64,000 nt of DNA, taken from contig CALXYM010000001.1 of the NCBI GenBank assembly GCA_944392965.1, positions 62,001 to 126,000 of the forward strand, in the 5' to 3' direction. The first letter of the stretch is position 1. Every line of letters starts with the position of its first letter. This DNA comes from an uncultured Spirochaetaceae bacterium. GTDB taxonomy: Bacteria > Spirochaetota > Spirochaetia > Sphaerochaetales > Sphaerochaetaceae. A program made the position numbers and the translations under genes. Of this stretch, positions 35,820 through 51,431 are shown one piece after another. The notes under the pieces are model-generated. The model was not told the origin of the DNA, ran no database searches, and saw only the letters and a list, made by a program, of their open reading frames with translations.

Positions 35820-35851
35820 CTCCATCCTTCGCTAATGCTTAGAGGATGGAG
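35820..35851 (-). ncRNA. Right-end hairpin, presumed 3' end of the TnpB omega-RNA
   Basis: In known TnpB elements the guide RNA covers the end of tnpB and the right end, and the guide is the flanking host DNA. Here the scaffold hairpin is followed by GGTTCAC and then by ACAGGTAATAGTTCCT, which is the 3' end of the glycosyltransferase gene in antisense. The RNA itself is inferred from family knowledge. Confidence 0.5.
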
Positions 35852-37163
35852 CTTCCGGGCTCTTTCCCTTCCCAGGGCGTCTCGCAGAATGCTCCCATAT
35901 CTCATACGAGGTATAAAAGTCTGATTTCCGCTCCTCCGGAGTATCCGTGTATTCCGCACGGATGCAGGCTCGTTTATGCTCACCTGCAAGAAGCAGTGTT
36001 TTCGCAGCCTTTACATCACGGTCTTCACTGTATCCGCACCCGCAGGTGAATATCCTGTCAGAAAGCGTGATGTCCTCATTGATGACTCCACAGCCCGGAC
36101 ACATCTTCGTCGAAGGGAAGAACCTGTCGACAACAAGCACATTGGGATTTGCAATGAGCTTCGCCTTCAGAGTCCCGAGCGCGCTGTTCTGTACCTGTCT
36201 GCCAAACAGCCCCTTATGCCATCCCTTGATATTCTCATCCTGGATGACGATAAGCTTTCTCCCTTTCGTGATGTCATGGTATGCCTGATTGGCCTTTGCC
36301 CTCCTCTTATTGGCAAGCTTCTCATATTCTCTCCTGATGAGATGTCTCGTATCATACCAGCCCCTGGAACCCTTCTTCTGGCGGGCGAACTTCTTCTGCA
36401 GGCCCTTGAGGCGTTCCGGTTCTCGGACTGTTATGTCGATCTTCTCTCCTTCGGAGGTCGTTATTGTCGTCTTGATGCCGAAGTCGAGACCAATTGACGG
36501 TTTATCCTCTGACTCTGATTTCCCTTTGCTTTCCGGTATATAGCATGTCAGCATCAGGTATATCCCTGACGGCCTCTTCACAAGCTTTGCATTTGCGAAT
36601 TCCGCATCTGGAGGAATCTGTTCCATTCCGAACACCCTTATGGGCCGTTTGATACCTGAGATGTGAACTGTATTCCGGTACTTCCCATTCCTGTTTCCAT
36701 CATTGCCATAGCAGATCCAGTGGGTGTTCCCATACTGATTAAGTTCTATTGCATTGTATTCGCTTCTGAACTTCAGCTTACCGTTCTTCTTTCCTGTCTT
36801 CTCACGCTTTGCGGCAAGGGATGTCATATCCTGCTTGATGGATGAATATACCGCCTGGATGAACTTGGCAGGCATTGTAAGCTGACGTTCAACAGGATTG
36901 CCTTCCTTATCCAGGGATGTGATGTCTCTTGCTTTCGTATTGAATGTTTTGAAATCGTCACCTGAAAGTGAAATGAGGTAGTTGCATAACCAGCGGCACT
37001 GGGTGAAGTAATGCCAGAGCTTTTCCTGCTCTGCCTTGTTAAGGCATTTCAGGTCAAGCTTCATTTCAATGACAGCAGGACGCAGCGAAGCGTGACGGGC
37101 ACGGGTTTCCTTGCCGTGCTCCTTGATGACACTATTCTTCTCGATGCGTGCTGATCCATCCAT
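35832..37163 (-). CDS. tnpB: TnpB, RNA-guided nuclease of an IS605-type element
   Basis: The protein of 443 residues has a full RuvC set: D in GLDFGIKTTIT, E in VIQDENIKGWH and D in CGYSEDRDVKAAKT. A zinc ribbon is formed by CPGCG and CGCG. The N-terminal wedge/REC part (LDLKCLNKAEQEKLWHYFTQ) and the length fit active TnpB proteins, and there is no frameshift or stop. TnpB is guided by omega-RNA to cut DNA next to a short motif. No RBS precedes ATG 37163; a TGG-TAGAAT -10 lies 5 bases before it, so translation may be leaderless. The C-terminal tail (RRPGKGKSPEAPSSKH) is encoded across the right-end hairpin. Confidence 0.93.
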   Translation of the reverse strand: MDGSARIEKNSVIKEHGKETRARHASLRPAVIEMKLDLKCLNKAEQEKLWHYFTQCRWLCNYLISLSGDDFKTFNTKARDITSLDKEGNPVERQLTMPAKFIQAVYSSIKQDMTSLAAKREKTGKKNGKLKFRSEYNAIELNQYGNTHWICYGNDGNRNGKYRNTVHISGIKRPIRVFGMEQIPPDAEFANAKLVKRPSGIYLMLTCYIPESKGKSESEDKPSIGLDFGIKTTITTSEGEKIDITVREPERLKGLQKKFARQKKGSRGWYDTRHLIRREYEKLANKRRAKANQAYHDITKGRKLIVIQDENIKGWHKGLFGRQVQNSALGTLKAKLIANPNVLVVDRFFPSTKMCPGCGVINEDITLSDRIFTCGCGYSEDRDVKAAKTLLLAGEHKRACIRAEYTDTPEERKSDFYTSYEIWEHSARRPGKGKSPEAPSSKH

Positions 37164-48706: not shown

Positions 48707-48997
48707 GTTTTTTTCGATGCCTGACGAGTTGGTCTTTCCTTGGGGCTGGCTATTTCAATGCTATCAGAAACTGCAGAAATAGGTAGTTATCTCAATTCGC
48801 GATATGTCCGCATGCTGATGATCTTTACAAATCTGTTTCTATCCGATTTTTTACCAGGAGCGGGTCAAAGCATTTCGATTATCTGATTTCCCTGTAGCAT
48901 GACGATTTGATTGGTAAGGACAGGCTCAGAGCATCCTTTTGGAGGTGTTCGACAAATTCGGACTTTTGAGAAAGAAAGGCATCTGGCAGCCTGATGT
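48707..48997. other. Gene-free stretch in the island
   Basis: No ORF of note on either strand and no clear repeat. It may hold decayed mobile sequence. Confidence 0.3.
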
Positions 48998-49084
48998 TTA
49001 GATTTTGTTTTCAGCCGACAGTTTGTTATACCATTTCTTCATCGATGGAAACACCTCGGAATCTGTTCCGATGAGCATGAGTCC

Positions 49085-49276
49085 TTAATACATGCAGTTG
49101 TAAAAGATTTCATTGCCCTCAAAGACATGTATGCCCGGTTCCTCCGGGCAGTCTATCATCTGTCCCAGCCTGTTGTCGAAGGCTTTTTTGACGGCCTTTG
49201 ATAGAACCTCGATCTTTTCGGAATCCAGGCCATCCTGAAATCTGATTGTCAAAGTATATTCGAATGTCTTACCCAT
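49085..49276 (-). CDS. Small protein of unknown function, perhaps truncated by an in-frame TAA
   Basis: From ATG 49276 the frame encodes 63 residues with an alternating strand-helix pattern (MGKTFEYTLTIRFQDGLDSE, KIEVLSKAVKKAFDNR, GIHVFEGNEIFYNCMY). Directly after the TAA (49087-49085) the same frame stays open for 28 more codons (GLMLIGTDSEVFPSMKKWYN...) to TAA at 48998, so the gene may originally have been about 92 residues. There is no RBS before 49276; TTGACC lies upstream as a possible -35. I do not recognise a family. Confidence 0.45.
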   Translation of the reverse strand: MGKTFEYTLTIRFQDGLDSEKIEVLSKAVKKAFDNRLGQMIDCPEEPGIHVFEGNEIFYNCMY

Positions 49277-49598: not shown

Positions 49599-50855
49599 AT
49601 GTGGTTGGTTAGACAGACAAACGTGAAGCTTGACCCTGCGAGGGAGATTGTTGTCGGGCATCTTTGCTATTCTGCGGCAAAAGTATAGAATGCCGCATTG
49701 TATGAGAGAATCAGGTTTCTCACCGGTCACGGTAAGATCGCTCCGGATCTTCACTCCCAGACAATCAGCTTGCAGAGTAATATATTTTTCCTTCAGTTGG
49801 GGATGGATATCGCAATTGAGGTTCTCAAGAAGGTGGAATGGGCATGGAAGAGCTATTTGGCGAGAAAGAAAATCAATGAAAATGAAGCAAGACTTCCAAG
49901 GTATAAAGGTGATGACTTTATCTGTGTGATTCCGAAGAGCTGTTATTCATGCAAAGGGAATACGGTCATTGTGGCCTTGAGTCAGGTTCTGAAAAATCAT
50001 ATGAAAAAAAGATTCAATATCGATGTCTCTTCTTTGATATTGGAAAACAACGTTTTCCCGGAGACTGAAAATATTGCACATGTCGAACTGCATGCTCCTT
50101 TGTCCGGTGCATGCAGAGTCGACCTGCTTTATAGAAAAAATGAGGAACCGGTTAGACCAGACAACGAAAGATATCTTGCAATCGATCTTGGGATCAGGAA
50201 TCCTGTCACAATGTGTTCGCCATCTACCGACGAGGTATTGATTCTCGGAAGAGAATGGCTTGAGTGTTCGCAGTATTTTGCAAAGCAGATAGCAAGATAT
50301 CAGATCTTGGATAAAAACAAGGATGATGGCAGACGTTTCAATTCCAAAAAGGTTGCATGGCTTTATGAAAAGAGGAACAACAAGATAAAAGAGATACTTA
50401 ATATCGTTACGCGTTATATTGTTTCGTATGCCCTTGATAATTCGATAAATACCGTGATTGTCGGAAACCTCAACGGTATAAGAATAAACAACGACAAAGG
50501 AAAGAGGATAAACCAGATGATCCATTCTTTTCCATACGACCGTTTTTATAAGATGCTCGGATACAAGCTCAAGATGATGGGAGTGCAGCTTGTGATGATC
50601 GATGAATCCTTCACCAGCCAATGCTCCCCGTATTCAAAGGCGATAGACAAGGAGCATGCGGAAAAGGAAAGACGAATTAAAAGAGGGCTGTATCAGGATC
50701 ATTCTGGAGCGAACTTCAATGCGGATGCGGTAGGGGCGTGGAATATATATCGGAAGTATGTTTTGCAGAAAGGAGGTTTTGTCGATTATCAGGATTTGAG
50801 CATGCTCTCACATCCAAAAGTGATACATTTTCCTGTAATTCCAGGAAAATGTTGA
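49599..50855 (+). pseudogene. TnpB-like gene with an amber codon and no zinc ribbon
   Basis: The frame opens at ATG 49599 (MWLVRQTNVKLDPAREIVVG), meets TAG at 49686-49688 in HLCYSAAKV-stop-NAALYERI, then runs 389 codons to 50855. The TAG stands where relatives have Trp (AKLWN-like), so it is one base from TGG. RuvC-like blocks: LAIDLGIRNPVT with Asp, IVGNLNGIR where the usual acid is Asn, IDESFTSQCSP and FNADAVGAWNI. The CxxC pairs of the zinc ribbon are missing. It resembles the TnpB subgroup that lacks the ribbon. No TnpA is present. Confidence 0.75.
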
Positions 50856-50961
50856 AGGTAACTGCTATCAGCAGTAGAGGCGTCAACGGCATGCCATATA
50901 CCGATAGGTATAGAAGCAAGACATTGCCATCTTATCTATGCTAGCTATGGTAAGTCTTGGC

Positions 50962-50989
50962 AATGGCATTAGCAGCCGCTAATGCCATT
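50962..50989 (+). repeat. Long perfect hairpin at the right end of the second TnpB element
   Basis: AATGGCATTAGC, loop AGCC, GCTAATGCCATT: 12 perfect pairs, followed by CAGTTCATTGAATTG. Position about 107 bases after tnpB fits a right-end/omega-RNA scaffold hairpin. Confidence 0.6.
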
Positions 50990-51047
50990 CAGTTCATTGA
51001 ATTGAGAAGTCTTTATTGTAAATGCTGGTGGATTGTCGTACATTTCC

Positions 51048-51067
51048 GGCATTCAATAGGTAGTCGG
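51048..51067 (+). repeat. Inverted copy of the tRNA-Ala anticodon-to-T-arm segment
   Basis: GGCATTCAATAGGTAGTCGG on the plus strand is identical to 20 bases of the tRNA-Ala gene, which lies on the minus strand (51146-51127). The two copies therefore form an inverted repeat around the tRNA terminator. Confidence 0.85.
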
Positions 51068-51082
51068 AGTCAGAAGGCATAA

Positions 51083-51107
51083 AAAAAGTCCTGGACCAGG
51101 ACTTTTT
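51083..51107 (-). terminator. Terminator of the tRNA-Ala gene
   Basis: AAAAAGTCCTGG-A-CCAGGACTTTTT, a 12-base palindrome directly at the tRNA 3' end, with a T-run on the minus strand. Confidence 0.9.
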
Positions 51108-51180
51108 GGAGCTGATCGGGATCGAACCGACTACCTATTGAATGCCATTCAATCGCTCTAGCCAGGTGAGCTACAGCCCC
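51107..51180 (-). tRNA. tRNA-Ala (anticodon GGC)
   Basis: The 74-base minus-strand sequence folds as a tRNA: acceptor GGGGCTG/CAGCTCC with one G-T pair, D stem GCTC/GAGC, anticodon stem ATTGA/TCAAT with loop ATGGCAT (anticodon GGC), T stem GTCGG/CCGAT with loop TTCGATC, discriminator A. CCA is not encoded. The 3' half is duplicated at 42165 and 40187, which marks it as an integration target. Confidence 0.93.
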
Positions 51181-51193
51181 GTTCAACTTCTGT

Positions 51194-51222
51194 AAAATAT
51201 CTTATTTTTTGAGAAATATCAA
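51194..51222 (-). promoter_or_regulatory. Promoter of the tRNA-Ala gene
   Basis: Minus strand: TTGATA (51222-51217), 17 bases, TATTTT (51199-51194), 13 bases before the tRNA 5' end. Confidence 0.6.
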
Positions 51223-51431
51223 TTACTTTTTTTTCATATGTTTTTACATTCTGGAAAAAATGTTTCATTCTCTGAGTTTATAATCGTAAGGGAGAAAAAG
51301 ATTAACAGATGTTCGTTATTGTATTAATAATAAGTAAAATTTATAACCATATATAATTAAAGAGGTTGACCCTCGGGGGTAAAAGCATTAATCTTGCCTT
51401 ACCTTATTTATTAGGACGAGAAAGAAAAGGA

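What the first reader, a model, noticed from the sequence alone, without database searches (positions are those of the whole stretch)
49599..50999. Second TnpB: amber codon, no zinc ribbon, altered RuvC position
The frame is intact except for TAG at 49686, where relatives have Trp. The usual acidic residue of the second RuvC block is Asn (IVGNLNGIR) and the CxxC pairs are missing, while Asp of block 1 and Asp of FNADAVGAWN remain. A nearby Glu in IDESFTSQ may take over. A subgroup of TnpB proteins with rearranged catalytic residues and no ribbon is known. The perfect 12-pair hairpin at 50962 suggests that the RNA part is kept. The gene might be dead, read through, or start downstream as an RNA-guided repressor.
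Basis: partly seen in the sequence, partly recalled or inferred. Interest (0 to 1): 0.55.

Follow-up and report, generated by a model that had tools for sequence, protein, structure and literature searches.

The report
Stop-interrupted TnpB with rearranged active site
A gut spirochaete carries a transposon gene for an RNA-guided DNA cutter of a known type in which one catalytic residue has moved; this copy is probably switched off by an early stop codon although its guide-RNA region is well preserved, so it is mostly an ordinary decaying copy, with one curiosity: its front and back halves have different histories.

Summary
The frame is a TnpB gene (above NCBIfam's guided_TnpB cut-off) interrupted by TAG at 49686-49688, codon 30 of 418. 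That is the published 'Ealt' arrangement (PMC10711439); one RuvC-II-rearranged TnpB is reported active (PMC10278001). Close relatives also lack a full zinc ribbon. Two spirochaete relatives have the gene open where readable; four Hespellia loci have it open beside an IS200-type TnpA frame. Here it is single-copy and TnpA-less; no CTA-anticodon tRNA among 43 tRNA matches, no Shine-Dalgarno at the start or first four restarts, no guide target above background. Best reading: a dead nuclease relic with preserved omegaRNA/right end. Read-through or downstream-start repressor is unsupported; sequencing error cannot be excluded. Unexpected: the gene is a mosaic. Synonymous differences from relative G035 fall from 61/124 to 25/176 codons at about 50268 (0 of 500 shuffles), so the N-lobe and RuvC halves have different histories.

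The parts
49599..50855 (+). TnpB frame, 418 codons plus stop, interrupted once; TnpB-only element without adjacent TnpA
   Evidence: profile of relatives spans all 418 positions with one TAG inside
49686..49688 (+). premature amber codon (codon 30); relatives have Trp
49698..50855 (+). 385-codon open stretch after the stop, possible TTG start without a Shine-Dalgarno match
50184..50186 (+). RuvC-I Asp (LAIDLG)
   Evidence: invariant in 10 of 10 rows
50268..50268 (+). best breakpoint between the diverged N-lobe half and the near-identical RuvC half (approximate; transition about 50200-50268)
50463..50465 (+). Gly at the canonical RuvC-II Glu position (IVGNLNGIR)
50604..50606 (+). alternative RuvC-II Glu, 'Ealt' (IDESFTSQ)
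   Evidence: invariant in 10 of 10 rows; definition from PMC10711439
50622..50633 (+). vestige of the zinc ribbon (CSPY)
50724..50726 (+). RuvC-III Asp (NADAVGAWN)
   Evidence: invariant in 10 of 10 rows
50825..51012 (+). inferred omegaRNA scaffold and right end; both borders approximate
   Evidence: fold z -4.96 and -4.13; 81% identical in G035 and G003; homology ends at 51002 by BLAST
50962..50989 (+). perfect 12-bp hairpin with a 4-nt loop near the right end
51013..51028 (+). inferred guide: flanking sequence just beyond the right end (start uncertain by about 10 nt)

Best explanation
This is a decaying, TnpB-only derivative of an IS200/IS605-type transposon. Its TnpB belongs to the known class with a rearranged RuvC site: Asp, alternative Glu, Asp, with Gly where the canonical Glu sits. 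The ancestral protein would have bound an omegaRNA made from the 3' end of its own transcript and the right end, taken its guide from the flanking chromosome and cut matching DNA, which favours keeping the element. In this copy an amber codon at position 30 most likely abolishes the enzyme and leaves a preserved RNA/right-end module without a protein. Shown here: the stop, the complete triad, the rearranged class by alignment, intact relatives, a TnpA partner in Hespellia, purifying selection on the RuvC half, the mosaic. Inferred: cleavage by the ancestor, the omegaRNA and its guide, present inactivity.
For: Stop at codon 30 and no other lesion apart from ending two codons before G035. Open homologues in G035 and in four Hespellia loci, and in the part of the G003 gene that its contig holds. 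Triad and Gly/Glu pattern invariant in 10 of 10 rows, aligned against Cas12f. RuvC half of the model (mostly pLDDT 64-89 with dips to 41) resembles Cas12f (Z 16.3), mimivirus Fanzor2 (Z 15.3) and TnpB (Z 13.6). One such locus in the genome and one right end. TAG is a normal stop, no CTA tRNA. 8 of 14 guided_TnpB matches in this genome cover less than half of the model, so TnpB decay is common here.
Against: dN/dS of the RuvC half against G035 is 0.076 and there is no frameshift, so death would be recent; window-only replacements at outgroup-invariant columns exceed G035-only ones 17 to 8, not significant (p 0.11). All three internal stops flagged in transposase matches of this genome are TAG, three cases only. 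A draft assembly can carry an error. The intact G035 gene also lacks an evident Shine-Dalgarno (by eye), so absence of one at the window start says little.
Confidence: 0.78

Rival explanations
1. The TAG is a sequencing or assembly error, or segregates in the population, and the gene is a live rearranged-site TnpB nuclease.
For: Strong purifying selection on the RuvC half, no other lesion; the genome is a 38-contig assembly judged 95% complete.
Against: No second assembly of the species was found to compare; 17 to 8 excess of window-only replacements hints at relaxed constraint. The locus lies in a 400,900-base contig.
Confidence: 0.1
2. The amber codon is read through and a full-length nuclease is made.
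For: Frame intact after the stop; the three internal stops flagged in transposase matches of this genome are all TAG.
Against: TAG terminates 7 of 47 hand-picked window ORFs; no CTA anticodon among 43 tRNA matches, though the genome is 95% complete and near-cognate read-through was not testable.
Confidence: 0.04
3. Translation starts downstream and the shortened protein acts as an RNA-guided repressor (TldR-like).
For: 385 open codons follow the stop; RNA part preserved; the GTG at codon 79 has GAGG upstream.
Against: No Shine-Dalgarno match at the first four restarts, while 21 of 24 control genes have one of 3 or more bases; the lost 33 residues carry strand 2-10 and most of helix 13-42 of the modelled N-lobe and residues 1-77 of the truncated model are under pLDDT 50; catalytic residues intact; guide matches elsewhere (two, with 2 mismatches) equal the control (two).
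Confidence: 0.04
4. The protein is dead but the right-end RNA is still made and serves as a guide for another TnpB of the cell.
For: RNA structure kept; PMC13418256 suggests gRNA supply in trans for a frameshifted tldR (figure-legend passage).
Against: No other TnpB of this family in the genome and no second right end; the other TnpBs were found only with the general model, and the C8 copy shows a canonical IEDL motif and CxxC pairs by eye.
Confidence: 0.03

Closest known systems
Ealt / RuvC-II-rearranged TnpBs with a DPhiG motif (PMC10711439; RII-r clades of PMC10278001)
   Same: Gly at the canonical Glu position, Glu in the ExYTS position, D-Phi-G (here DLG), NAD in RuvC-III
   Different: This copy has a premature stop; which RII-r clade it falls in was not determined
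TnpB of Hespellia stercorisuis (L064, L067), with an IS200-type TnpA
   Same: About 36% identity, same catalytic pattern, CSPY, no ribbon
   Different: Hespellia has a TnpA frame 13 bp upstream and a much shorter right end; the window has neither
TldR, TnpB-like nuclease-dead repressors (PMC13418256, passages)
   Same: TnpB-derived, with an RNA region beside the gene and no adjacent TnpA
   Different: Nuclease triad complete here, no flagellin or csrA gene seen adjacent, no target found, N-terminus lost to a stop
Fanzor2 (mimivirus, 9b0l)
   Same: RuvC-half fold (Z 15.3); alternative Glu (class feature, PMC10711439)
   Different: Fanzors have DPG, this has DLG; bacterial; IS200-type rather than IS607 partner in relatives

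Membership tests
TnpB (OrfB_IS605 / guided_TnpB) | Family profile above curated cut-off | tested here: met
   guided_TnpB 109.4 bits against 100; PF01385 56.7 against 30.5 and PF07282 37.1 against 26.3
TnpB (OrfB_IS605 / guided_TnpB) | Uninterrupted N-lobe and RuvC in one protein | tested here: not met
   TAG at codon 30; the locus is filed as a disrupted TnpB gene
TnpB (OrfB_IS605 / guided_TnpB) | Right-end RNA transcribed, processed and bound | not testable with these tools
   Only structure and conservation were seen
Ealt (RuvC-II-rearranged) TnpB | Glu absent from the canonical RuvC-II position | tested here: met
   Gly256, 10 of 10 rows; alignment to Cas12f
Ealt (RuvC-II-rearranged) TnpB | Glu at the alternative position, six residues before the zinc finger | tested here: met
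   Glu303 aligns with the Pro six residues before the first Cys in Cas12f; here one residue between Glu and Cys is deleted, so the literal spacing is five
Ealt (RuvC-II-rearranged) TnpB | Glu close to the two Asp in three dimensions | not tested
Fanzor / pro-Fanzor | DPG motif in RuvC-I | tested here: not met
   DLG
TldR | Loss of nuclease active-site residues | tested here: not met
   Asp, alternative Glu and Asp present
TldR | Guide matching a promoter or gene elsewhere in the genome | tested here: inconclusive
   16-base guide: no match beyond control level in the held genome, guide border uncertain, genome 95% complete
IS200/IS605 transposon | TnpA adjacent | tested here: not met
   None beside the window copy or G035 (neighbours HNH_2 and DUF3737); three Y1_Tnp matches elsewhere in the genome; present in four Hespellia loci by frame position, profile run on one
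IS200/IS605 transposon | Recognisable left and right ends | tested here: inconclusive
   Right end by homology drop; no left-end hairpin seen in the window; no empty site found

The most novel reading that the evidence does not exclude
A natural lobe swap: recombination joined a diverged guide-RNA/TAM-binding N-lobe to a near-identical rearranged RuvC half, putting a new specificity on an old nuclease; in this copy the RNA module then outlived the protein and still acts, for instance as a guide supplied in trans.
Probability: 0.04. Interest if true: 0.5.

Novelty: new member of a known kind. Interest (0 to 1): 0.2.

Why it matters
It resolves a suspected oddity: the Gly/Asn and the missing ribbon are normal for a published class of TnpB, and what is special to this copy is a stop codon. 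The mosaic of N-lobe and RuvC halves is the point worth keeping. If found in more copies it would show that TnpB lobes are exchanged in nature, which bears on how TnpB and Cas12 specificities evolve.

Tried and rejected
Rejected: a frame or alignment artefact at the Asn (relatives share the motif). Rejected: Cys to Tyr as damage (L064-L067 also have CSPY). Rejected: an amber-suppressor tRNA (no CTA among 43 matches). Rejected: rescue by a second copy in the genome (none).

Led nowhere: two scans of viral contigs (18 and 193 pattern stretches, no relative confirmed); Rfam (whole window at gathering score: the tRNA only; 50600-51250: the tRNA and one match at E 0.76; L062-L064: none); the search for an empty site with both flanks over 48 genomes and by local comparison. 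The model of the intact relative is weak in the RuvC half (pLDDT mostly under 60), so its Foldseek list (63 matches at E <= 0.001, led by Cas12f and TnpB) is only family-level support. Distances between catalytic residues could not be measured. Altae-Tran 2023 (PNAS) and Wiegand 2024 (Nature) are not held; I saw only citations of them. For the mosaic one literature search was made (3 papers listed, none opened), which does not show that it is not in print.

Weak or dropped rows: L022 was a fragment and L005 is cut by a contig end, and the window's other TnpB aligned poorly; none of these entered. L069 (30% over a part) was not used. L068 lacks the first 74 residues. One search counted only columns with at least four outgroup letters; 45 further columns where both sequences differ from the outgroup were not assigned.

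Full report
Observation. The + strand frame 49599-50855 is open but for TAG at 49686-49688. The stretch after the stop (385 codons) passes the cut-offs of PF01385 and PF07282 and of NCBIfam guided_TnpB. A profile of relatives aligns over all 418 positions with one TAG inside. The locus is a TnpB gene with a premature stop at codon 30.

Catalytic residues. In ten aligned TnpBs, window included (others: G035, G041, Hespellia, two phage records from human gut, a lactobacillus plasmid, a methanogen plasmid, a cyanobacterial plasmid, a Helicobacter phage), Asp163, Gly256, Glu303 and Asp343 (numbered from 49698) are invariant. These rows were found as relatives of the query, so this shows a shared arrangement, not how common it is. 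PMC10711439 (passages; one section) defines this Glu as Ealt, reports clear separation of Ealt from canonical sequences, and splits Ealt into a DPhiG clade and a DPG clade with the Fanzors; this gene has DLG. PMC10278001 (passages) reports one RII-r5 ortholog active on dsDNA. The arrangement is known and compatible with cutting. Which RII-r clade applies here I did not determine.

Ribbon. G035 and G003 keep one CxxC (CSPC), L018 has CSPH, L064-L067 have CSPY and L068 CPPH. The Tyr here is a family variant.

Relatives and mobility. In 100 near genomes two besides the window's own carry a close relative (G003, G035; 75% identity); four others have none as close: three distant matches at 26-35% and the rest of the 100 none at E 1e-10. 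In 392 genomes of the phylum only the window's genome and G035 reach E 1e-40 (G003 is not in that listing). A scan of 84,980 species' genomes confirmed 8 loci: the two spirochaete MAGs, two loci in Hespellia stercorisuis, two Hespellia MAGs, another clostridial MAG (34-36%), and a weak partial match in a Lokiarchaeota MAG. In the four Hespellia loci a frame of TnpA type ends 13 bp before TnpB; the profile was run on one (PF01797, 2.9e-41). The window and G035 copies have no TnpA beside them; three Y1_Tnp matches lie elsewhere in the window's genome. The copies lie at different places: the window's beside tRNA-Ala(GGC) and asd, G035's beside a DUF3737 gene and an HNH gene, some 15 kb from its own tRNA-Ala. 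Homology on the right ends near 51002-51013; G035 and G003 are 99% alike up to their right end and diverge at once after it. G035 has a small hairpin just before the start codon, the window does not, and no empty site was found.

RNA part. The right-end region folds better than all 200 shuffles (z -4.96; -4.13 window and -4.29 G035). The hairpin arms are the same in the three spirochaete copies except the outermost base, with a longer loop in G035 and G003. Of 56 consensus pairs, 4 are changed on both sides and kept, but 10 are broken or gapped in the window, among them the outer four-pair helix, and the covariation term is slightly unfavourable (+0.46). G035 and G003 are nearly identical, so this is in effect a comparison of two lineages. 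It supports a conserved structured end, not a fully conserved fold.

Is it alive? For: dN/dS 0.076 in the RuvC half and no other lesion. Against: the stop; no CTA anticodon among 43 tRNA matches (30 loci, 12, one; matches); TAG ends 7 of 47 window ORFs that I picked by hand; no Shine-Dalgarno match at the original start nor at codons 34, 58, 67 and 69, though GTG codon 79 has GAGG (21 of 24 control genes have 3 or more bases). Of 14 guided_TnpB matches in the genome 8 cover less than half of the model. Two of those 14 and one of three Y1_Tnp matches have a stop inside, all TAG; three cases are too few to argue for read-through but are told here. Window-only replacements at outgroup-invariant columns are 17, G035-only 8 (p 0.11). 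The first 33 residues contain strand 2-10 and most of helix 13-42 in the intact relative's model, where the N-lobe is mostly pLDDT 67-93; in the truncated window model residues 1-77 are under pLDDT 50. Both models rest on 8 sequences and differ in which lobe is confident, so this is supportive only.

Guide. Bases 51013-51028 match only themselves exactly; two sites with two mismatches equal the two control matches. No sign of a repressor target, within the uncertainty of the guide border.

Mosaic. Between window and G035 the synonymous difference is saturated in the 5' half (ps 0.73) while dS is 0.33 in the 3' half. Of 300 codons with the same amino acid (Met and Trp left out), 61 of 124 differ before and 25 of 176 after the best breakpoint at codon 224 (50268); LR 43.8, 0 of 500 shuffles. 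Amino-acid identity is 58% and 94% in the two halves, but 32% and 45% to L064, while L064 to L018 runs the other way, 81% and 74%. The N-lobe is thus not simply faster; recombination is the likeliest cause. Constraint on the RNA level of the 3' half is an alternative that I did not test.

Verdict. A disrupted member of a known TnpB class; low interest, with the lobe mosaic as the point to follow.

Noticed in passing
window 51048-51067 and 51127-51146: A 20-nt inverted copy of part of tRNA-Ala(GGC) lies beyond its terminator hairpin, between the TnpB right end and the tRNA; G035 and G024 show weaker inverted similarity at their tRNA-Ala loci.
   Followed up: partly
window 35832-37163: The window's other TnpB has two further matches in the genome with equal scores to each other (C2:235679 and C16:32977), all without internal stops, so that family looks multi-copy and intact.
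   Followed up: no
window 48827-49265: The stretch before the TnpB has no long ORF and shares 78-86% pieces, in rearranged order, with G003:C5: a decayed region of unknown origin.
   Followed up: partly
window 50825-50852: A 14-nt inverted repeat (93%) spans the last codons of the TnpB frame, perhaps a first stem of the RNA.
   Followed up: no
L008 1344-2781 (G003:C10): Right at the transposon right end G003 has 1.4 kb where G035 has 80 bp, with two frames, one weakly HIRAN-like and below the cut-off.
   Followed up: partly
L136 (G000:C8:47500-49500): Another TnpB of the window's genome is split between two frames, with a canonical IEDL motif and CxxC pairs by eye.
   Followed up: partly
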